From: Candidatus Kaiserbacteria bacterium RIFCSPHIGHO2_02_FULL_54_11b
GTDB lineage: Bacteria; Patescibacteriota; Minisyncoccia; Phycocordibacterales; UBA2100
DNA: 7,568 nt
Reading direction: 5' to 3'
Assembly: GCA_001781275.1 (NCBI GenBank)
Contig: MFLH01000023.1
Location: forward strand, 2,347-9,914
The notes under the pieces were generated by a model that saw only the letters and a list, made by a program, of their open reading frames with translations, was not told the origin of the DNA and ran no database searches. A program made the position numbers and the translations under genes. Positions 3-7,568 of the stretch are shown in pieces. How positions within the stretch are numbered: position 1 is the first letter of the stretch; each line of letters begins with the position of its first letter.

Positions 3-1763
3 GCTGCGGGCAACGCCGTTGCGGCGGTACCCTTCAGATTTTGGTCAGGTCAGTTGCAAGTCAACTTCTCGCTCGACAGCGCAAAAGTTCCCACAAACTA
101 CATACCGCCCGGCACAGATAGTTATCCGTATTCGTTCGCGCGAGTAGGTGAGGTGGGGGCGGAATGGTTTGCTCGCCTCATTCAGGCACGAGTGCTTCAG
201 GCAGGCGCACAGGGTGTCGAATTCGACGTGGCGAGGTGGACGTGGGGCCGGCAGAACAACAGTAATTTCGCGATGGACGCAGACAACGACCTCGTCGTTG
301 ATCACGGCTATGTTGCGGGTGTAAACAGTTTCGGGCTCGGTGCCCGGGTGTTCCATGAGACGCTACGCTCTCTTTTGGGAACAAACAAAATAATTCAAGC
401 GGACAGTACCGCCTCTACCGGCGGTGTCAGGGATTGGAAGTATTTAAACGGCGTCCAGATGGAATCGTTCCCTTCTGCGAATGATTACGATATTTTCTCA
501 GCGGCATTTACGCACCTCAGACTATGGTCGGAGAATGCGGGGAAGGGACAAAGCGGCATCGTCCCGCTTACGTACGCGTATTCGAAAACGGCGACGGAAG
601 CATACAACGTATGCACGATAAAACGTGATTACGACAACACAGGCCTCATCGTCCCGATTACGCCGACAGGGCAGTGCCTGCAGCCTTCCTTCCTCGAACA
701 GTTCAAAGGCCTCAACAGCCGCGCGCGGATCAATCTCGCCTCCGCAACGCTCGTGGAAATGATGAATCCATATACAGCGCTCGAAACGAACGAATACTAT
801 GACCCGGATGGCATACAGGAGACCGGAACTATTCGCGGGACATTCGATTGGGATGAGTACCACCGCGGTGTCGACAATGTGTGGGGGTGGTTGGGAAAGC
901 CCGTCGGGTCACTCAAACGCGAACTGCAGTACACTTCCGGGAATCTTTTTGCACAAACATCATGGTCGCTCCAGAAAGACGCGGGATTCCAGGCGACTAC
1001 TGTGGGAAGCGGCGGCGTACTCTCCGCGATAGTCACGGAAAAAGCGGATCCCGGTGTGGTCGTCCCGAATGAAAGCTGGGGAAGTGTGCGCTTTGTGCCA
1101 AGCACTGCGCTTGCGCTCACACCCGGCAAGGAGTACACGATAACCTTCGATGCACGCGGCGATGACGATTGGACCTATAAGGGAAAGACATATCAAGATG
1201 TCCCGCGCATGCTCGCCGTGTTCATGCCGATGAAGACCGTGCGCTTGTTACGGGCCATGGGCGTGCTTGTCGATAGTTCATGGCGCTCATATTCACTTAC
1301 GTTTACGGCGGCAAGCTGTCCTTCGTCTTCTACCAACGACCGCTTCTGCCCACCTTCGGGAATCAATACACCGTATTTTGGGGTATCGGAACAAGTAGGC
1401 AAGACGGAAATTCGCAACATTAAGGTGTACGAAGGCTCGGGCGAACGATGGTCGCGTGAATTCGGGGGTGGCATTGTGCTCCTCAACATGTCGAACGTGC
1501 CGTGGAATGTCGCGCTCAGCGGTTCATTCAAACGCATACAAGGAATGGTAGATCCGGTCGTGAACAACGGCAGTGCGGTGGGCTCTTCCGTCACCATTCC
1601 CGCCCGCGACGCCTTGTTCCTGGTGAGGACCGCCGCACCCTCCGCATCGGCCACACCCGCAGGAGATAGACCCTACGCCCAACTCGCCTCTACGTTCACC
1701 GCACTCGAGTCCGTCATGGACGACATCAAGGCCCTCATCTTCCGCACGTTCGGACCTAATTAG
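3..1763 (+). CDS. Secreted-type glycoside-hydrolase-like protein (GHL15-like), 5'-truncated by the window edge
   Basis: The frame is open from the left edge, so the true start lies outside; the TTG at 54 is only the first internal start-like codon. Numbering from 54 gives 569 residues. Residues 30-290 read like the barrel of the putative glycoside hydrolase family GHL15: a helix followed by GAQGVEFDVARW (D58), a strand with LNGVQMESFP (E137), and NVWGWLGKPVG near 275-285. A beta-rich stretch at about 295-460 (WGSVRFVPSTALAL, YTITFDARG, YFGVSEQVGKTEIRNIKVYE) resembles a carbohydrate-binding jelly roll. The hydrolase pattern then resumes with WSREFGGGIVLLNMSNVPW and a closing strand PARDALFLVR. 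A Ser/Ala/Pro linker and a 30-residue helical tail finish the protein. Its likely role is polysaccharide cleavage or binding outside the cell. The family call rests on remembered motif patterns; catalytic residues are not proven. Confidence 0.6.
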   Translation, partial: AAGNAVAAVPFRFWSGQLQVNFSLDSAKVPTNYIPPGTDSYPYSFARVGEVGAEWFARLIQARVLQAGAQGVEFDVARWTWGRQNNSNFAMDADNDLVVDHGYVAGVNSFGLGARVFHETLRSLLGTNKIIQADSTASTGGVRDWKYLNGVQMESFPSANDYDIFSAAFTHLRLWSENAGKGQSGIVPLTYAYSKTATEAYNVCTIKRDYDNTGLIVPITPTGQCLQPSFLEQFKGLNSRARINLASATLVEMMNPYTALETNEYYDPDGIQETGTIRGTFDWDEYHRGVDNVWGWLGKPVGSLKRELQYTSGNLFAQTSWSLQKDAGFQATTVGSGGVLSAIVTEKADPGVVVPNESWGSVRFVPSTALALTPGKEYTITFDARGDDDWTYKGKTYQDVPRMLAVFMPMKTVRLLRAMGVLVDSSWRSYSLTFTAASCPSSSTNDRFCPPSGINTPYFGVSEQVGKTEIRNIKVYEGSGERWSREFGGGIVLLNMSNVPWNVALSGSFKRIQGMVDPVVNNGSAVGSSVTIPARDALFLVRTAAPSASATPAGDRPYAQLASTFTALESVMDDIKALIFRTFGPN

Positions 1764-2509: not shown

Positions 2510-3712
2510 ATGGCAGCAGAAGAATTCAATCGCAGTAAGCCGCACGTCAACGTCGGCACGATCGGACACGTCGACCACGGCAAGACGACCTTGACCGCGG
2601 CGATTTTGAACGTGCTCTCGAAAGCGGGCAACGGCTACTCGGCGACCGTCAAAGGCGTTGATGATATCGACAAGGCGCCCGAAGAGAAGGCGCGCGGTAT
2701 TACGATCTCGCTCTCGCACTCCGAGTATGAGACGCCGAACCGCCACTACGCACACGTCGATGCGCCGGGCCACGCCGACTACATCAAAAACATGATCACG
2801 GGTGCCGCTCAGATGGACGGCGCGATCCTCGTCGTCGCAGCATCCGACGGCGTCATGCCTCAGACACGTGAGCACATCCTGCTTGCCAAGCAGGTCGGCG
2901 TGCCAAAAGTCATCGTCTTCCTCAACAAAGTCGATCAAGTCGACGACAAAGACCTCATCGACCTCGTCGAAGAGGAAGTCCGCGAGCTCCTCGAGAAGCA
3001 GGGTTTCGACGGCAAAGCGACACCGGTCATCCGCGGTTCGGGTCTCAAAGCACTTGAGAACTCCGCACCGGGCAATGAGTGGAGCGACAAGATCATGGAG
3101 CTCGTCAAAGCGCTCGATGAATATATCCCGCAGCCGGTTCGTGAGCTCGACAAGCCGTTTCTCATGCCCATCGAAGACGTGTTCTCCATCGAAGGCCGTG
3201 GCACCGTCGTCACCGGCCGCATCGAACGTGGAATCGTCAAAGTCGGCGGAGAGATCGAGATCGTCGGTATCCACGACACCGCCAAGACGACCGTCACGGG
3301 CGTCGAAATGTTCAACAAATCGCTCCAACAGGGCCAAGCAGGCGATAACGCAGGAGTCCTCTTGCGCGGCACGAAGAAAGAAGATGTGCACCGCGGACAG
3401 GTCCTCTGCGCGCCGGGCTCGGTCAAGCCGCACACTGAATTTGAGTCGGAAGTATACATTCTGACCAAAGAAGAGGGTGGCCGCCACACACCGTTCTTCA
3501 CAGGTTACAAGCCGCAGTTCTACATCCGCACCACGGATGTGACGGGCGAAGTGACCCTCAAAGAAGGAGTGGAAATGGTCATGCCGGGCGACACCGTGAC
3601 TTTCAAGGTAAAGCTCGTCTCTCCGATCGCTATCGAAGACCAGATGCGTTTCGCTATCCGCGAAGGTGGTAAAACGGTGGGAGCTGGTGTGGTAACAAAG
3701 ATTGTTGCGTAA
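2510..3712 (+). CDS. tuf: Elongation factor Tu (EF-Tu)
   Basis: 400 residues, full length for bacterial EF-Tu (E. coli 394). It carries aminoacyl-tRNA to the ribosomal A site as a GTP complex. The GTPase motifs are clear: GHVDHGKT (19-26), RGITI (62-66), DAPGHAD (84-90), NKVD (139-142) and SGLK (177-180). Domain 2 (around 210-305) carries [14 protein letters not shown], and domain 3 contains RHTPFF and the C-terminal strands ending in [11 protein letters not shown]. The ATG at 2510 gives the usual [20 protein letters not shown] start; a TTG two codons upstream is less likely. No Shine-Dalgarno sequence precedes it. Unusual residues are switch [10 protein letters not shown], where most bacteria have RGITI-NT-(A/S)H, Ala85 in place of the usual Cys of DCPGH, and Gly178 in place of Ala in SALK. 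The gene has its own promoter and terminator. Confidence 0.98.
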
Positions 3713-3741
3713 TTCCTTTTCTAAGGAATCGCAGGGAAAAT

Positions 3742-3786
3742 CCCGCCTCAACCCAGTAGGTCATTCTACTGAATGAGGCGGGTTTT
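3742..3786 (+). terminator. Intrinsic terminator of tuf
   Basis: CCCGCCTCA (3742-3750) pairs perfectly with TGAGGCGGG (3774-3782) and is followed by TTTT. Inside it CAGTAG (3754-3759) pairs with CTACTG (3766-3771) around a six-base loop, making a two-part stem. It begins 29 bases after the tuf stop codon. AAAA just before the 5' arm could let it also work on the other strand. Confidence 0.85.
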
Positions 3787-3792
3787 CTCACA

Positions 3793-3801
3793 TGCTATAA
3801 T
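3793..3801 (+). promoter_or_regulatory. Extended -10 promoter of the first coiled-coil gene
   Basis: TGC-TATAAT is a perfect extended -10 box (TATAAT 3796-3801), beginning six bases after the T run of the tuf terminator. No -35 box is present because that position lies in the terminator stem. The ATG follows after eight bases, so the transcript should be leaderless or nearly so. The same arrangement precedes the paralogue at 6480. Confidence 0.65.
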
Positions 3802-3809
3802 CGCCATCC

Positions 3810-4100
3810 ATGAAGAAGCGGAAGATCAAAAGCAGGGGAAAGAGTGAGACGCGCGAAATCCTTGAGATCGTGAATTTCATCAAGGATCGGATGCTTACGA
3901 AAGATGAAGGCGCAACCAAGGACGACGTTGCCCAGATTCGTACCGACCTTCGGGATATCCGTCAAGAGCTCAAAGACATTAAGCATCGCCTCGATGTTCT
4001 CGAAGAGCAATTTAAGAATCTCAAGGGGGTCACAAGGGAAATTGATGAACTGAGAGACCGAGTCAAGATGATCGAAAAACAGCTTGCAGCAAGACGTTAA
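3810..4100 (+). CDS. Small coiled-coil protein with TKDD motif, copy 1
   Basis: 96 residues with no known function. A basic N terminus (MKKRKIKSRGKSET) is followed by EILEIVNFIKDRM and then a doubled TKDE/TKDD motif at 30-39. Heptad-rich helices with many charged residues (IRQELKDIKHRLDVLEEQF, then residues 72-91) run to the end, IEKQLAARR. There is no signal peptide or membrane segment, so it is probably a cytoplasmic, self-associating coiled coil. Similar short TKDD coiled-coil proteins seem to recur in Patescibacteria genomes (recollection, not tested). The protein at 6480-6749 is a clear paralogue: about half the aligned residues match, with both ends best conserved. It appears to be translated from a leaderless message. 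Confidence 0.8.
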   Translation: MKKRKIKSRGKSETREILEIVNFIKDRMLTKDEGATKDDVAQIRTDLRDIRQELKDIKHRLDVLEEQFKNLKGVTREIDELRDRVKMIEKQLAARR

Positions 4101-4116
4101 GAATATCTTACTCCGC

Positions 4117-4131
4117 GAATTCGGCGGGGGA
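4117..4131 (+). repeat. 15-bp repeat, copy 1, after the first coiled-coil gene
   Basis: GAATTCGGCGGGGGA begins 16 bases after the stop codon at 4098-4100. An identical 15-mer begins 16 bases after the stop codon of the paralogue (6766-6780). The 16 bases between stop and repeat differ at most positions, so the repeat is conserved more than its surroundings. A shorter match, CGGCGGGGGA, occurs at 6441-6450. Confidence 0.7.
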
Positions 4132-4139
4132 GAAATGAG

Positions 4140-4166
4140 AAGGCCGCGAGGATTAGTCGCGGCCTT
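4140..4166 (-). terminator. Hairpin between convergent genes, likely terminator
   Basis: AAGGCCGCGA (4140-4149) and TCGCGGCCTT (4157-4166) form a perfect 10-bp stem with a seven-base loop. It lies between the plus-strand coiled-coil gene (stop 4100) and the minus-strand gene (stop 4183). Read on the minus strand it is followed by TTCTCATTTCT, a moderately T-rich tail, so it most plausibly ends the minus-strand transcript. It may serve both directions. Confidence 0.65.
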
Positions 4167-4182
4167 CGCGTCGCTATTTCCG

Positions 4183-4632
4183 TCAGACGAAGTCCGTCTT
4201 GACGATGTGCGGCGGATGCAGGAAGAAATGAACAAGATGCGGATTCGGATCTCTCCGCGAGACTGCGAGAGGCACATTGAGCCGAAGCACGTCCGCGGGC
4301 CGCCATCCGAGTTGACTATCCTGCAGGTAGAACTGCGTGTGCTCGGGAAGGTCCTTGAATGCGATTGACGCGACGTGTTTATCGGCGGCTTTTCGTGCAT
4401 CGCTGAGGTGCAACTCCATCCGCAGCATGGAGACCAGCGTGTCTTCCTCGGCGTTTAGTTGTTTAGTCGGGATGAACAGAACGCCGTACTCTGGCAAGTG
4501 ATAGAGGCATTTGCTGCAGTCCGTACACCGGTAGACATCGTAGCCGCCGAGCATCGTTCCGCCGTGGCAGACAAGCTGCCATTCAAATTCAAACATCCCT
4601 GACTGGCAGGGGCAGATAGGGAATCGTCTCAT
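4183..4632 (-). CDS. Uncharacterised Cys-rich (possible zinc-binding) protein
   Basis: 149 residues, not recognised. The first 45 residues carry C7-x-C9 (CPC), C22-H23, C36-x-x-C39 and C42 (RCTDCSKC), a spacing that could form a zinc ribbon. The rest is soluble, with an acidic helix (NAEEDTLVSMLRMELHLSDARKAADK) and a His-rich end (NPHLVHFFLHPPHIVKTDFV). There is no membrane segment. A GGAG Shine-Dalgarno sequence lies about eight bases before the ATG on the minus strand. It is the only minus-strand gene in the window, and a perfect hairpin follows its stop codon. An overlapping plus-strand frame starting around 4084 is less likely because it lacks start signals and protein-like composition. 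Expression is not proven; the metal-binding idea is inferred from Cys spacing. Confidence 0.65.
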   Translation of the reverse strand: MRRFPICPCQSGMFEFEWQLVCHGGTMLGGYDVYRCTDCSKCLYHLPEYGVLFIPTKQLNAEEDTLVSMLRMELHLSDARKAADKHVASIAFKDLPEHTQFYLQDSQLGWRPADVLRLNVPLAVSRRDPNPHLVHFFLHPPHIVKTDFV

Positions 4633-4764
4633 GACACTTCTCCGCGTTGATTCGCTCCGAGAAACCTACCTTCTCACGGCACAAAAAGCAACATAGCGGA
4701 TTTTGAAACGCGGGCGGGTCAATGCTCAGGATTTCTTCATGATGCAGGTGTATACTCTGCAGAC

Positions 4765-4776
4765 TATTAGCTAATA
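4765..4776. promoter_or_regulatory. 12-bp palindrome upstream of the YCII-like gene
   Basis: TATTAGCTAATA is a perfect palindrome in an A/T-rich stretch (4760-4786) just after a possible -10 box, TATACT at 4751-4756. It could be a repressor site or part of a promoter. It belongs to the 4633-4833 gap, which otherwise contains only the adjacent inverted repeats and no gene. Confidence 0.35.
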
Positions 4777-4788
4777 AAATAAATTAGG

Positions 4789-4833
4789 GCCGCGTAATAG
4801 TTGACGGTACGCGGCATGATTTCGCTAAATCAT
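4789..4833 (+). promoter_or_regulatory. Two abutting hairpins ending at the YCII-like start codon
   Basis: GCCGCGTA (4789-4796) pairs with TACGCGGC (4808-4815) around an 11-base loop. The very next base begins ATGATTT (4816-4822), which pairs with AAATCAT (4827-4833) around the tetraloop CGCT. The second hairpin ends directly before the ATG at 4834. As RNA the two stems could stack and would occupy the place where a ribosome-binding site should be. No known riboswitch was recognised. Confidence 0.5.
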
Positions 4834-5196
4834 ATGAAAAAATTCTTGGCGATTTATTTGGGGACGATGGAGGACGATTCTTTTAAAAAGTGGATGGCGA
4901 TGCCCGAGGCAGAGCGCAAAGAGATAGAGCAGAAGGGGATGGCGGCGTGGATGAAATGGGGGCAAGACCATGCGGCGTCTATTATCGACAACGGCTCGCC
5001 GATCGGCAAAACCAAACGGACCGACAAAAACGGCGTCGCGGATACGAAGAACGCGATAAGCGGCTACGCTGTCGTACAGGCCGAGACGCACGAGGAGGCG
5101 GCAAAAATGTTTGAAAACCACCCGCACTTTACGATTTTTCCCGGCACCTCGGTCGAGATCATGGAATGCCTCCCGATGCCCACAATGTCTGAATAA
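4834..5196 (+). CDS. YCII-like (DGPF/YciI superfamily) protein
   Basis: 120 residues. The opening strand MKKFLAIYLG, a helix with MAAWMKWGQDHAASIIDNGSPIG, then SGYAVVQAETHEEAAKMFENHPHF and a closing strand TSVEIMECLPM follow the ferredoxin-like fold of YCII-related proteins (COG3795-like), which form dimeric alpha-beta barrels. The HP pair at 96-97 is typical of the family. No defined reaction is known for most members. I chose the ATG at 4834 because homologues begin with a strand of this kind; an in-frame ATG at 4816 would add six residues but lies inside a hairpin. No Shine-Dalgarno sequence is visible. The gene stands alone between a structured leader and the toxin-antitoxin promoter. Confidence 0.8.
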   Translation: MKKFLAIYLGTMEDDSFKKWMAMPEAERKEIEQKGMAAWMKWGQDHAASIIDNGSPIGKTKRTDKNGVADTKNAISGYAVVQAETHEEAAKMFENHPHFTIFPGTSVEIMECLPMPTMSE

Positions 5197-5209
5197 CCAC
5201 TCATCCCTC

Positions 5210-5221
5210 ATTCGCGCGAAT
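5210..5221. other. 12-bp palindrome between the YCII-like gene and the TA promoter
   Basis: ATTCGCGCGAAT is a perfect palindrome 13 bases after the YCII-like stop codon and 22 bases before the -35 box of the toxin-antitoxin operon. It has no loop or T run, so it is a poor terminator. It could be a protein-binding site. Confidence 0.3.
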
Positions 5222-5243
5222 AAGCGGAAGGAGGATTGGTGTA

Positions 5244-5271
5244 TTGACAGTGTGCGCACATGGTATATACT
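5244..5271 (+). promoter_or_regulatory. Promoter of the toxin-antitoxin operon
   Basis: A perfect -35 box TTGACA (5244-5249) and TATACT (5266-5271) are 16 bases apart. The antitoxin ATG follows after seven bases, so the transcript is predicted to be leaderless. No Shine-Dalgarno sequence precedes the ATG, consistent with this. Confidence 0.7.
5251..5260. promoter_or_regulatory. Putative antitoxin operator in the promoter spacer
   Basis: TGTGCGCACA is a perfect 10-bp palindrome that sits entirely between the -35 and -10 boxes. Ribbon-helix-helix antitoxins of the RelB/DinJ family bind palindromes overlapping their own promoter, so this is the natural candidate for autoregulation. Binding is inferred from position and symmetry only. 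Confidence 0.5.
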
Positions 5272-5278
5272 CTTGGCT

Positions 5279-5542
5279 ATGACTACGTTAAATGTGCGAG
5301 TTGAAAAGAAGACTAAACGGGAGGCGCGAAAGGCGCTTGCTGACATTGGTTTGGATATGTCCTCGGCGGTCAACATCTTTCTCAAACAAGTTATAGTTGA
5401 GCAAGGATTGCCTTTTACACCGACAAAGAAAGACCCAAAAAAGATCCGCGCCGCATGGGATAGGGAAGCCGCGTGGGCACTTAAGCATGGGAAAAGATAC
5501 ACAGATACCAAAGAACTTTTTAGAGATCTTGGGATAGAATAA
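5279..5542 (+). CDS. RelB/DinJ family antitoxin
   Basis: 87 residues. The N-terminal half (TTLNVRVEKKTKREARKAL, then a helix with GLDMSSAVNIFLKQV) is a ribbon-helix-helix DNA-binding and dimerisation fold. EQGLPFTP matches the conserved turn of DinJ/RelB proteins. The C-terminal segment ending DTKELFRDLGIE matches the DinJ tail that wraps the toxin. It should neutralise the YafQ-type toxin encoded four bases downstream and repress the operon. The frame is open further upstream, but the ATG at 5279 is the right start: it gives the family start MTTLNVRV and lies seven bases after the -10 box. Confidence 0.93.
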   Translation: MTTLNVRVEKKTKREARKALADIGLDMSSAVNIFLKQVIVEQGLPFTPTKKDPKKIRAAWDREAAWALKHGKRYTDTKELFRDLGIE

Positions 5543-5546
5543 GTGC

Positions 5547-5834
5547 GTGTATACAATAGTCTTTTCACGCCGTTTCGCACGGGCACTTGAGAAATTAAAA
5601 AGGTCGGGCAAATTCTCTGTTGCGGTCGCGGACGATTACAAGCGCGTAACGGAATTATTGAAAACTGGCCAACGGTTGCCGTCAATCTTCCGAGACCATG
5701 CGTTGATCGGCGATTATCTTGGCTACCGAGAGTGTCACATTAAGGGAGATCTGCTACTCGTTTACGAATATCGGGAGGATATCGTAGTCATTCTTCTAAT
5801 TGATATCGGCAGTCACTCGCAAATCTTCGGATAG
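5547..5834 (+). CDS. YafQ family (RelE/ParE superfamily) mRNA interferase toxin
   Basis: 95 residues with a GTG start four bases after the antitoxin stop codon. The pattern FRDHALIGDYLGYRECHIKG with DLLLVY and a C-terminal GSHSQIF matches E. coli YafQ. The residues equivalent to YafQ His50, His63, Asp67, His87 and Phe91 are present as H51, H64, D68, H90 and F94, so the toxin looks intact. YafQ toxins bind the ribosome and cut mRNA in the A site, favouring certain Lys codons in E. coli; the target preference here is unknown. It is translationally close-coupled to its antitoxin, and the acetyltransferase follows after three bases. Confidence 0.92.
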   Translation: MYTIVFSRRFARALEKLKRSGKFSVAVADDYKRVTELLKTGQRLPSIFRDHALIGDYLGYRECHIKGDLLLVYEYREDIVVILLIDIGSHSQIFG

Positions 5835-5837
5835 GAT

Positions 5838-6380
5838 ATGGAACTTATTGAACCGTCAACGGAATACAAAGATTCATTCATCGAAGCGGTGAAGGAGTTT
5901 CAGGCTGATAATGACTACACAAATCGCAATAGGCGTTATCGCAATCTCTCCATACCGAAGCTCGAGAATGACTTCGGTTCATTCGTCGCGGAGGTAGGAA
6001 GCCATGCGGAGGGAAAGAATCTCCAGGAAGGCTATGTGCCCGAGACCGAATATTGGTTCGTAGACAACGGCGAGTTCATCGGCCGTACAAGTATCCGCCA
6101 CCGGCTCAACGACAAGCTCACGTACATCGGCGGTCACATCGGCTACGACATCCGACCGACCAAACGAGGCAAGGGGTACGGCAACAAAATATTCGAACTC
6201 GCCTTACGGAAAGGTAAAGAACTCGGTCTTACGCGAGTGCTGATAACATCCGACGCCCGCAATATAGCGTCGAGGAAAATCATCGAGAAAAATGGCGGTG
6301 TTTTCGAAAACAAGGTCGTGAATCATGAAAAGGGCTTCGAGGGATTCGACGCGCTACGCTATTGGATAGACATTAAATAA
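5838..6380 (+). CDS. GNAT family N-acetyltransferase (COG3981-like)
   Basis: 180 residues. The GNAT core is clear: a strand with GEFIGRTSIRHRL, the strand GGHIGYDIRP, the acetyl-CoA pyrophosphate loop RGKGYG (110-115), the strand VLITSDARNIASRKIIEKNGG with N142, and a final aromatic strand. The IRHRLNDKL and GGHIGYDIRP patterns fit the COG3981 group of predicted acetyltransferases, whose substrates are mostly unknown. The ATG lies three bases after the toxin stop codon and has AGGAT as a ribosome-binding site, so it is almost certainly in the toxin operon. It could modify a small molecule or protein, or be an accessory toxin, but it is not of the usual DUF1778-partnered AtaT/TacT type. Confidence 0.9.
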   Translation: MELIEPSTEYKDSFIEAVKEFQADNDYTNRNRRYRNLSIPKLENDFGSFVAEVGSHAEGKNLQEGYVPETEYWFVDNGEFIGRTSIRHRLNDKLTYIGGHIGYDIRPTKRGKGYGNKIFELALRKGKELGLTRVLITSDARNIASRKIIEKNGGVFENKVVNHEKGFEGFDALRYWIDIK

Positions 6381-6386
6381 TTGCTC

Positions 6387-6457
6387 GGAAAATTCCCTCC
6401 TACGCATCTTCGCGTTCGCTACGAGCTACGGACGGGCAGGCGGCGGGGGAGTTTTCC
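6387..6457 (+). terminator. Long-stem terminator after the acetyltransferase gene
   Basis: Positions 6387-6399 (GGAAAATTCCCTC) pair with 6445-6457 (GGGGGAGTTTTCC), 13 pairs including two T-G wobbles, and the 3' arm contains a TTTT run. The loop of about 45 bases contains repeated GCTACG units and GGGCAGG, and may be a dispersed intergenic element. It lies six bases after the stop codon of the toxin-antitoxin operon and runs straight into the next promoter. Confidence 0.5.
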
Positions 6458-6461
6458 CGTG

Positions 6462-6470
6462 TGTTATAAT
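6462..6470 (+). promoter_or_regulatory. Extended -10 promoter of the second coiled-coil gene
   Basis: TGT-TATAAT (TATAAT 6465-6470) is a perfect extended -10 box nine bases before the ATG at 6480, with no -35 box. A GTTTTC string begins exactly 14 bases before TATAAT, as it does at the first coiled-coil gene. A leaderless transcript is predicted. Confidence 0.65.
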
Positions 6471-6479
6471 CCTCAAGCT

Positions 6480-6749
6480 ATGAAGCGGAGGGGCAGAAGC
6501 AAAGGTAAGAGCGAGACGGCGGAGATTCTCGATATTGTCAATTTCGTCAAGGACCGAATGGCGACGAAAGATGACATTGTTCGTATTGAAGAGCGCCTGT
6601 ATTCGATTGAGCAGGAACTGAAAGATATTAAACGGCGACTCGCAAAGCTCGAGGATAACTATGAGGCGGTTCGAGAATACGGCGATGATATCAAGGCATT
6701 GCAAGGGCGCATTAGGGCGATAGAAAAACAATTAGCAACGAGGCGTTAA
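6480..6749 (+). CDS. Small coiled-coil protein with TKDD motif, copy 2
   Basis: 89 residues, paralogous to the protein at 3810-4100. Shared blocks are GKSET, EIL-x-IVNF-x-KDRM, TKDD, QELKDIK and the end IEKQLA-x-RR. The middle helix is diverged, and the six-residue TKDEGA-type insertion of copy 1 is missing. It is predicted to be an all-helical, charged, cytoplasmic coiled coil; function unknown. I chose the ATG at 6480 rather than an upstream in-frame TTG at 6381 because it aligns with the paralogue's start and lies nine bases after a perfect extended -10 box, whereas the upstream part would run through the terminator hairpin. Confidence 0.8.
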   Translation: MKRRGRSKGKSETAEILDIVNFVKDRMATKDDIVRIEERLYSIEQELKDIKRRLAKLEDNYEAVREYGDDIKALQGRIRAIEKQLATRR

Positions 6750-6765
6750 AAACACTTTGTCAGAG

Positions 6766-6780
6766 GAATTCGGCGGGGGA
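6766..6780 (+). repeat. 15-bp repeat, copy 2, after the second coiled-coil gene
   Basis: GAATTCGGCGGGGGA begins 16 bases after the stop codon at 6747-6749 and is identical in sequence and spacing to 4117-4131. Here its GGGGGA end lies four bases before the ATG at 6785, so it may also act as the ribosome-binding site of the DM13 gene. Confidence 0.7.
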
Positions 6781-6784
6781 TGAT

Positions 6785-7252
6785 ATGCTGACGGGAATGG
6801 GGAAAAAACTTTTGTACGGAGTCGGGGGAGCCATCCTTCTCGGAGCGCTTGCCTTCGCGTACTACGCGATTTCGCCGCTTTTCATCAATATCAAAGTCGA
6901 CGAACAGGCTCCCATCTCCGAAGAGAGCGCGCAAACTCCTGACGAAATCGTGGCAAACGTCGTCGACACACCTGCACATCCCGCTTCAGGTACGGTGCGC
7001 ATCGTGGAGGCAGACGGCAGGCGCTACGTCAGGTACGAGAATTACAAGACGATAAACGGCCCCGACATCTTCGTGTACCTCGCAAAAGACCTCGACGCAA
7101 AGGAATTCATCGATCTCGGTCGTGTAAAGGCAACGGAAGGGAATATCAATTACGAGATTCCGGCAGGTGTCGACGCCGCGGAGTACAGGTACGTCCTCAC
7201 GTGGTGCAGGGCATTTGGGGTGCTCTTCAACTACGCCGATATATCAGCCTAG
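6785..7252 (+). CDS. Membrane-anchored DM13 domain protein
   Basis: 155 residues. Residues 9-34 (LLYGVGGAILLGALAFAYYA) form a single N-terminal membrane anchor after a short basic stretch. An acidic linker follows to about residue 65. Residues 66-153 match the DM13 domain: SGTVRIVEADG, then VRYENYKTINGPDIFVYLA, FIDLGRVKATEGNINYEIP and the YVLTWCRAFGVLFNYADI end with C141. DM13 is proposed to be a redox or electron-transfer module containing a near-invariant Cys, acting outside the membrane; direct evidence is limited. The ATG at 6785 has GGGGGA four bases upstream; an alternative ATG at 6797 would remove four residues. The gene follows the second coiled-coil gene by 35 bases. Confidence 0.85.
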   Translation: MLTGMGKKLLYGVGGAILLGALAFAYYAISPLFINIKVDEQAPISEESAQTPDEIVANVVDTPAHPASGTVRIVEADGRRYVRYENYKTINGPDIFVYLAKDLDAKEFIDLGRVKATEGNINYEIPAGVDAAEYRYVLTWCRAFGVLFNYADISA

Positions 7253-7262
7253 GAGGCATCTG

Positions 7263-7291
7263 TTGCGTTTTTTATCCCCGTAGTGCATACT
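7263..7291 (+). promoter_or_regulatory. Putative promoter of rpsJ
   Basis: TTGCGT (7263-7268) and CATACT (7286-7291) are 17 bases apart, with TG directly before the -10 box. The ATG of rpsJ follows after 11 bases with no Shine-Dalgarno sequence. This suggests the S10 operon starts here with a very short or absent leader, instead of being read through from tuf. Confidence 0.5.
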
Positions 7292-7302
7292 CTTTGGGTT
7301 CT

Positions 7303-7568
7303 ATGACAGCAGAAGCGAAGGTTGTGAAGGCTCGCAAGCCGCGTGCCAAAAAGGCGGTTCCTACTGCCAAAGCTGCCGCCGCACCGGGTTCGACCCGCTC
7401 ACCACAAGCTGCTCCTCGTGTAAAAAAGACAGAAAGCGTACACCGCCTCCGCATCAAAGTCCGCGCCTATGAGCACGGCATTTTGGATAAGTCGGTCAAG
7501 CAAATAATCGACACGGCCGCGCGCTACAACGCCACGGTCGTGGGCCCCGTGCCGCTTCCTATCGATAT
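7303..7568 (+). CDS. rpsJ: 30S ribosomal protein S10, 3'-truncated by the window edge
   Basis: 88 residues are visible and the frame is open at the right edge. From residue 48, HRLRIKVRAYEHGILDKS then AARYNATVVGPVPLP matches the S10 core, which normally begins within the first few residues of the protein. S10 is part of the small-subunit head and, in model bacteria, also partners NusB in antitermination. Here an N-terminal extension of about 47 residues rich in Ala, Lys and Pro precedes the core. It is probably disordered and basic. The ATG at 7303 is the only plausible start: it lies 11 bases after a -10 box and no later ATG precedes the core. rpsJ normally leads the S10 ribosomal protein operon. 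Confidence 0.95.
   Translation, partial: MTAEAKVVKARKPRAKKAVPTAKAAAAPGSTRSPQAAPRVKKTESVHRLRIKVRAYEHGILDKSVKQIIDTAARYNATVVGPVPLPID

What the first reader, a model, noticed from the sequence alone, without database searches (positions are those of the whole stretch)
3742..7291. Accessory block inserted between tuf and rpsJ, bracketed by two same-direction cassettes
tuf followed by rpsJ is a common junction of the str and S10 operons. Here 3.6 kb separates them, holding a toxin-antitoxin operon, an acetyltransferase, a Cys-rich protein and a YCII-like protein. Both edges of that cargo carry a copy of the same cassette (3782-4131 and 6451-6780). This could reflect cassette-mediated insertion, or duplication of a cassette that then captured cargo. 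The paralogy and positions are seen; the insertion history is inferred.
Basis: partly seen in the sequence, partly recalled or inferred. Interest (0 to 1): 0.75.

Follow-up and report, generated by a model that had tools for sequence, protein, structure and literature searches.

The report
Insulated gene hot spot beside rpsJ
In one genus of small uncultured bacteria, two core translation genes that sit side by side in related genera are often separated by a changing set of accessory genes, likely because each core gene there has its own predicted transcription stop or start signal, so that inserted genes would do little harm.

Summary
The 3.6-kb block between tuf and rpsJ is real and sits at a junction that is tight elsewhere: outside the genus 133 of 135 genomes have tuf and rpsJ within 500 bp (median 75), inside it 9 of 31 do (median 1.4 kb, up to 9.9 kb). 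The two 'cassettes' are real paralogs (52% identical) but look like passengers. They do not bracket the insert (a DM13 gene lies outside copy B). They are not sisters (AU p 1.7e-5). Two of 31 genomes carry clear members at this junction. G003 has YCII and GNAT genes there without cassettes; G033 has one cassette and no other called gene. What all 31 share is a promoter-like element before rpsJ (TTGC-N16-GTGCATACT, at least 11 of 13 matches; best of 20 outgroup junctions 9); 28 of 31 have a terminator-like hairpin after tuf (outgroup 1 of 20). I read this as an insulated landing site with modular gene turnover and no recombinase seen. It is not unique: 30 of 167 conserved junctions differ by over 1 kb between two genomes of the genus. 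Hot spots and str-S10 insertions are known; the insulation link is the new part.

The parts
2510..3712 (+). tuf (EF-Tu), left core flank
   Evidence: orthologs 85-96% identical at protein level in 40 of the 51 other genus genomes (one of them, G032, a contig-end fragment)
3738..3786 (+). predicted intrinsic terminator of tuf: 13-nt arms around a nested hairpin, then T run
   Evidence: (I24) and folding; missed by the short-loop criteria, which find hairpins in 28 of 31 genus genomes
3796..3801 (+). TATAAT promoter-like box of cassette A, 8 nt before the ATG
   Evidence: read from the sequence
3810..4100 (+). cassette A: 96-aa coiled-coil-like protein
   Evidence: nearest homolog from another named organism P0012, Kaiserbacteria
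4117..4131 (+). 15-mer shared with cassette B
   Evidence: found only at these two places in the own genome and in none of 59 relatives
4139..4167 (.). hairpin between the convergent cassette A and Cys-containing ORF, terminator-like
4183..4632 (-). cargo: Cys-containing ORF, no family match; the codon model starts it at 4596
4834..5196 (+). cargo: YCII-related protein
   Evidence: relatives at the same junction in 7 of 31 genomes counting this one
5244..5271 (+). promoter-like TTGACA-16-TATACT overlapping a palindrome, before RelB
   Evidence: 11 of 12 matches; I7
5279..5542 (+). cargo: RelB/DinJ-family antitoxin
5547..5834 (+). cargo: YafQ/RelE-family toxin
5838..6380 (+). cargo: GNAT acetyltransferase, starting right behind the toxin gene
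   Evidence: relatives at the same junction in 4 of 31 genomes counting this one
6465..6470 (+). TATAAT promoter-like box of cassette B, 9 nt before the ATG
   Evidence: read from the sequence
6480..6749 (+). cassette B: 89-aa coiled-coil-like protein
   Evidence: nearest full-length homolog P0001
6766..6780 (+). 15-mer shared with cassette A
6785..7252 (+). cargo outside the cassette pair: DM13-domain protein
   Evidence: E 1.4e-15
7263..7291 (+). rpsJ promoter-like element TTGC-N16-GTGCATACT, 11 nt before the ATG
   Evidence: 31 of 31 genus genomes score at least 11 of 13 with fixed spacing; 20 outgroup junctions score at most 9
7303..7568 (+). rpsJ (ribosomal protein S10), right core flank; the gene continues past the window across a run of N

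Best explanation
The 3.6-kb block is one species' version of a gene-turnover hot spot that in this genus lies between a predicted tuf terminator and a predicted promoter of rpsJ, and is likely tolerated because these signals would insulate both core genes from whatever lands between them. Shown: in 133 of 135 genomes outside the genus the two genes lie within 500 bp; inside it the interval runs from 91 bp to 9.9 kb with mostly private called genes (71 of 98), and called cargo genes end before the conserved element in front of rpsJ in all 31. Inferred: the common ancestor of the genus had already gained the terminator and the promoter, which turned an operon interior into a boundary. Small gene modules then come and go there; the likely route is taken-up DNA swapped in by ordinary homologous recombination in the conserved flanks, since no integrase or transposase is seen. 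The coiled-coil cassettes A and B are two separate passengers.
For: Gaps: genus 17 of 31 over 1 kb against 1 of 135 outside it; rplC-rplD never over 189 bp in 44 genus genomes. Terminator-like hairpin within 90 nt of the tuf stop in 28 of 31 (0.7 expected in mononucleotide shuffles) against 1 of 20 outgroup junctions. Element TTGC-N16-GTGCATACT before rpsJ in 31 of 31 (26 perfect, lowest 11 of 13, spacing always 16), outgroup at most 9, once in the 859-kb G027 contig. No called cargo gene overlaps it. Between G027 and G040, junctions with a terminator expanded by over 1 kb in 7 of 13 pairs against 12 of 137 without (p 2e-4; 7 of 13 against 9 of 53 when the shorter gap is at least 50 bp, p 0.01; tuf-rpsJ itself is not in this test). 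YCII at the junction in 7 and GNAT in 4 of 31 genomes, yet tblastn finds no relative of either in the G027 contig, 400 kb of G040 or 960 kb of G071 (genomes that carry YCII or GNAT here were not searched elsewhere). Large/small interval needs at least 7 changes on the tuf tree.
Against: The tuf tree is poorly resolved (27 of 38 inner branches open), so cargo loss from an old full interval cannot be told from repeated gain. The order of events (signals first or insertions first) is not shown. tuf-rpsJ is not exceptional within the genus: rank 11 of 167 junctions between G027 and G040, rank 16 of 175 (G027) and 2 of 94 (G040) against the outgroup G071; the reverse comparisons give similar rates, 15 of 166 and 8 of 88 over 1 kb. 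The rpsJ element was not found by the sigma-70-type scan and could be an operator rather than a promoter. G036, G041 and, for its long loop, G000 show no terminator by the criteria. Homologous exchange was not tested, and a motif search of G027 found RecA- and PilB/T-like ORFs but no DprA- or ComEC-like one.
Confidence: 0.68

Rival explanations
1. Cassette-mediated insertion: the coiled-coil cassette is a mobile or duplicating unit that carried the cargo in, leaving copies at both sides.
For: Two same-direction copies flank five of the six cargo genes; identical 15-mer after both; G033 has one cassette and no other called gene.
Against: A and B do not group together (AU p 1.7e-5); DM13 lies outside B; G003 has YCII and GNAT without cassettes; clear cassette members at the junction in 2 of 31 genomes; only two copies in the own genome; the 15-mer is absent from 59 relatives.
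Confidence: 0.08
2. Ancestral islet with loss: the genus ancestor held a long interval with YCII, GNAT and other genes, and lineages have been losing different parts.
For: YCII (7 of 31) and GNAT (4 of 31) recur at the same place and on the same strand; no relatives elsewhere in G027, 400 kb of G040 or 960 kb of G071.
Against: 71 of 98 called interval proteins have no relative in any interval (some short calls may be spurious); pairwise identities within YCII run from 27 to 78% and do not follow tuf closeness: G000 is nearer to G047 than to G003.
Confidence: 0.22
3. A site-specific integrative element uses the conserved rpsJ-proximal sequence as its attachment site.
For: The element is fixed in sequence and spacing in 31 of 31 genomes, unique in G027, and cargo abuts it in several genomes (10-17 nt in G000, G027, G033, G028, G030).
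Against: No second copy of the element in the own contig, in G027 or in 400 kb of G040, although insertion at a site should leave a repeat; no integrase among the families listed for 77 cargo proteins; present also where the interval is nearly empty.
Confidence: 0.05
4. Assembly artefact: the block was joined between tuf and rpsJ wrongly in this metagenome assembly.
For: The assembly is a 56-contig draft and the contig reads N on both sides of the window (assembly gaps or withheld stretches, not known which).
Against: No N inside the window; YCII, GNAT and cassette relatives sit at the same junction in other genomes of the genus.
Confidence: 0.03

Closest known systems
Chromosomal hot spots of horizontal transfer between core genes (Oliveira et al. 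2017, PMC5635113; abstract and passages seen)
   Same: Variable genes between two conserved neighbours, fast turnover, often no recognisable mobile element; exchange by homologous recombination in flanking core genes is their proposed mechanism.
   Different: Here the comparison is between species of a genus, recombination in the flanks was not tested, and the site opens inside what is a tight translation-gene pair in the rest of the order, with a terminator and a promoter-like element that I did not find in 19 and 20 of 20 outgroup junctions.
str-S10 insertions in Gammaproteobacteria and Bacilli (events P38 and F72, Brandis 2021, PMC8046335; passages and section 17 seen)
   Same: [quoted passage not shown] after P38 the operon pair is disconnected in many modern species.
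   Different: Those are single events with defined genes (bfd-bfr; ilv-leu); here called contents are mostly private to one genome while order and strand of tuf and rpsJ are kept in 31 of 31.
Integrons and other cassette arrays (recalled, no call)
   Same: Small genes with recurring noncoding sequence at one place.
   Different: The recurring unit is itself a gene, copies are diverged, and no integrase was seen.

Membership tests
Hot spot between core genes (Oliveira sense) | Same pair of flanking core genes kept in order and orientation | tested here: met
   31 of 31 genus genomes with both on one contig; 7 more have them on different contigs. G025, one of the 7, has tuf 197 bp before rplC
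Hot spot between core genes (Oliveira sense) | Interval contents differ between genomes | tested here: met
   71 of 98 called proteins have no relative in any interval
Hot spot between core genes (Oliveira sense) | More variable than the genome background | tested here: inconclusive
   rank 11 of 167, 16 of 175, 2 of 94 junctions
Hot spot between core genes (Oliveira sense) | Raised homologous recombination in the flanking genes | not tested
   needs many strains of one species
Mobile cassette element | Copies at both ends of the insert | tested here: not met
   DM13 lies outside copy B
Mobile cassette element | Associated recombinase or integrase | tested here: not met
   for ten window proteins; for 77 cargo proteins of relatives (first 25 of 38 and of 34 families shown)
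Mobile cassette element | The two copies descend from one recent duplication | tested here: not met
   AU p 1.7e-5 (20 rows, 107 columns)
RelBE/YafQ-type toxin-antitoxin pair (cargo) | Antitoxin and toxin genes adjacent, both above family cut-offs | tested here: met
   TIGR02384 69.4 bits (cut-off 45.65), TIGR02385 75.7 (27.9), PF15738 84.6 (30)

The most novel reading that the evidence does not exclude
A single regulatory change founded a hot spot: when the ancestor of this genus gave rpsJ its own unique promoter and tuf its own terminator, it cut the str-S10 operon at that point and turned one of the tightest gene pairs of the order into a permanent, recombinase-free landing site, and terminator-bounded junctions are in general where these small genomes take in new genes.
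Probability: 0.35. Interest if true: 0.68.

Novelty: new variant of a known kind. Interest (0 to 1): 0.5.

Why it matters
Why accessory genes land where they do is an open question, above all in streamlined genomes without obvious mobile elements. Here the likely 'before' state (tuf and rpsJ close together, 133 of 135 genomes) and the 'after' state (terminator plus promoter-like element, 31 genomes) can be compared at one named pair of genes, and a genome-wide version of the rule (terminator present, so junction expands) holds in the one pair of genomes tested. It also gives a concrete rpsJ-specific element to test, and warns against reading two flanking paralogs as a mobile cassette.

Tried and rejected
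Cassette as mobile element: rejected (see rivals). The identical 15-mer as a recombination or regulatory site: no copy elsewhere in the own genome or in 59 relatives; the script found it in no other of the 41 loci it scanned, G033 and G050 included; left open. tRNA as integration site: none in the window. Rfam: no match at gathering score. First genome-wide control used a longest-ORF picker in which tuf-rpsJ did not appear, probably because longer shadow ORFs displaced tuf; replaced by homology-based gene picks. First promoter scoring used a wrong spacing range and did not separate the groups cleanly (genus 9-13, outgroup 6-10); repeated with the right range. First rpsJ search in the box used the wrong frame; repeated. 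First interval gene calls missed YCII and the toxin-antitoxin genes of the window; the codon-usage caller found YCII but still missed RelB and YafQ, so short atypical genes in relatives may be missed too. Search for competence genes by motif in G027: RecA- and PilB/T-like found, DprA- and ComEC-like not found; a regex miss is weak evidence. A weak cassette match in a genome of another genus of the family (G055, E 1e-5) was not followed.

Rows dropped before counts: second or partial hits of one gene in one genome (G034 rpsJ on C50; second rplC pieces of G050 and G048; both rplD hits of G050, the G020 rplD piece, the second G031 rplD piece; G115, G178, G156, G180 partial rplC in the order set); G000 and G002 left out of the order set because they are genus members. 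The 21 genus genomes outside the 31: 7 have tuf and rpsJ on different contigs, 14 lack a hit to one of them. Of 167 consecutive ortholog pairs, 17 with a shorter gap over 600 bp were left out of the terminator test (150 used). The 20 outgroup junctions are 20 of 135, picked by hand, not at random. Of 98 called cargo proteins, 77 (75 aa or more, not from the window's own genome) went to the family scans. p-values treat genomes or junctions as independent.

Print check: the titles and abstract starts listed (10 to 15 each; some of these searches matched hundreds to thousands of papers) show no paper on a tuf-rpsJ hot spot or an rpsJ promoter in this lineage; that covers open PMC papers, those terms and those lists only.
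Full report
What is in the window. tuf (2510-3712) and rpsJ (7303 on) are on the same strand with 3590 bp between them. The interval holds, in order: a terminator-like hairpin (3738-3786), coiled-coil cassette A, a Cys-containing ORF on the minus strand, a YCII-like gene, a RelB/YafQ-type pair, a GNAT gene starting right behind the toxin, cassette B, a DM13-domain gene, and a promoter-like element before rpsJ. The cargo is lower in GC (44.7-56.0% per gene) than tuf (57.6%) and rpsJ (58.3%). The two cassette proteins are clear paralogs (52% identity, E 1e-27 in a single comparison). Cassette B is not at the rpsJ edge, because DM13 lies outside it, so the picture of cargo bracketed at both edges is not exact.

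Is the block an insertion? In 52 genomes of the genus (the own genome included), 31 have tuf and rpsJ on one contig, in the same order and strand in all 31; 7 have them on different contigs and 14 lack a hit to one. The distance from the tuf stop to the rpsJ match is 91-9861 bp; by match coordinates 22 of 31 exceed 500 bp and 17 of 31 exceed 1 kb. In the order outside the genus, 135 genomes have both on one contig: median 75 bp, 2 of 135 over 500 bp, 1 of 135 over 1 kb. The only other genus of the same family in that sample, G053, has 37 bp. Close spacing is therefore the likely ancestral state. The next junction, rpsJ-rplC, is also open in the genus (21 of 21 over 500 bp, median 6.6 kb) and looser in the order (25 of 129 over 500 bp), while rplC-rplD never exceeds 189 bp in 44 genus genomes.

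How special is the junction? I compared the single contig of G027 and 400 kb of G040 with 960 kb of the outgroup G071. Of pairs adjacent in G071, 22 of 175 are over 1 kb apart in G027 (rpsJ-rplC ranks 1, tuf-rpsJ 16) and 7 of 94 in G040 (tuf-rpsJ ranks 2, rpsJ-rplC 10). The reverse comparisons give 15 of 166 and 8 of 88. Between G027 and G040, 30 of 167 consecutive ortholog pairs differ by over 1 kb; tuf-rpsJ ranks 11. So the junction belongs to the open fifth or so of junctions; it is not unique.

Are the cassettes the agents? The evidence says no. A profile of the family finds it in 15 of 52 genus genomes at E<=1e-7, but at this junction only in G000 (two) and G033 (one); the gene calls add a distant coiled-coil-like protein in the G034 interval, 27-29% identical. 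In an order-wide draw of 397 genomes, only 3, all of this genus, match at E<=1e-8. G033 is the 'one cassette, no cargo' state: tuf, hairpin, cassette, rpsJ in 490 bp. G003, the nearest row to the window on the tuf tree though still distant (86% DNA identity), has YCII and GNAT relatives in the same order and strand without cassettes; its GNAT gene follows a phosphoribosyltransferase gene, not a toxin gene. In the protein tree, A groups with P0012 (80% identity) and B with P0001 (76%); holding A and B together is rejected (AU p 1.7e-5; short proteins, 107 columns). A G050 copy sits behind an ORF whose end reads like leuS (the leuS reading is mine). The identical 15-mer after both cassettes is beyond chance and unique to this genome among 60 searched; I cannot explain it.

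What the genomes do share. After tuf, 28 of 31 genus genomes have a terminator-like hairpin within 90 nt (0.7 expected in mononucleotide shuffles); the window's own has a nested loop that my criteria miss but folding shows; G036 and G041 have none by the criteria. Of 20 outgroup junctions, 1 has one. Before rpsJ, 31 of 31 have TTGC-N16-GTGCATACT with fixed spacing (26 perfect of 13 positions, lowest 11); the 20 outgroup junctions reach 9 at most, and of 620 shuffles 1 reaches 11. G027 carries it once in 859 kb, at rpsJ. It ends 11 nt before the start codon in most genomes, so the message would be almost leaderless; that step is inferred. Even the shortest intervals (G021, G023) hold hairpin and element. 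No called cargo gene overlaps the element in any of the 31.

Mechanism. I read the junction as insulated: what lands between the two signals would disturb neither core gene. A check that leaves tuf-rpsJ out fits: between G027 and G040, junctions with a terminator in the shorter version expanded by over 1 kb in 7 of 13 cases, those without in 12 of 137 (p 2e-4; 7 of 13 against 9 of 53 for shorter gaps of at least 50 bp, p 0.01). Cargo recurs at the same address: YCII in 7 and GNAT in 4 of 31 genomes, though neither has a relative in the G027 contig or the held parts of G040 and G071; the genomes that carry them here could not be searched elsewhere. No integrase or transposase is among the families listed for 77 cargo proteins (25 of 38 and 25 of 34 families shown). 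Exchange through the conserved flanks is the likely route, untested. Long-term keeping and loss of an old islet is the main rival.

Known ground. Hot spots between core genes, often without mobile elements and with recombination in the flanks, are described by Oliveira et al. 2017 (PMC5635113; abstract and passages seen). Insertions between str and S10 that loosen their linkage are described by Brandis 2021 (PMC8046335; passages and section 17 seen). New here, as far as the lists show, are the genus-wide opening of tuf-rpsJ in this lineage and its tie to a conserved terminator and rpsJ element. The genus has no name in my calls; one cassette homolog is named Kaiserbacteria, and the G033 cassette contig has the length (11,025) and match of a record titled LaPlata_bin-2928.

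Noticed in passing
window 7263-7291 and the same place in 30 relatives: An rpsJ-specific element TTGC-N16-GTGCATACT, fixed in spacing across the genus and found once in the G027 contig; it was not in the finding and became the core of the explanation.
   Followed up: yes
window 4117-4131 and 6766-6780: Identical 15-mer GAATTCGGCGGGGGA starting 17 nt after the stop codons of two diverged paralogs, nowhere else in the own genome or 59 relatives.
   Followed up: partly
window 3796-3810, 5266-5279, 6465-6480, 7286-7303: Promoter-like -10 boxes end 7-11 nt before the start codons of four genes, which suggests near-leaderless messages in this genome.
   Followed up: no
window 5279-6380: GNAT gene starts 3 nt after the stop of the RelB-YafQ pair. 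Its relative in G003 follows a phosphoribosyltransferase gene instead, the one in G030 follows a 74-aa ORF without a family match, and in G013 it is the only called gene.
   Followed up: partly
L003 9914-9999: rpsJ of the own contig runs across a run of N; rplC is on another contig (G000:C42), so the second open junction cannot be measured in this genome.
   Followed up: no
G025:C14 and C7: tuf lies 197 bp before rplC while rpsJ is on another contig: rpsJ has apparently left the cluster.
   Followed up: no
G034:C50 and C52: Two rpsJ hits in one assembly, one beside tuf and one on the contig of rplC; a second copy or contamination.
   Followed up: no
G022 and G038 tuf-rpsJ intervals (L090, L084): Two diverged YCII-like genes in one interval in each genome.
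   Followed up: no
rpsJ-rplC junction, 21 genus genomes: Even wider than tuf-rpsJ (783 bp to 21.8 kb) and the largest expansion of 175 junctions in G027.
   Followed up: partly
window 3-1763: Long ORF upstream of tuf with no Pfam match above cut-off and no NCBIfam match.
   Followed up: no
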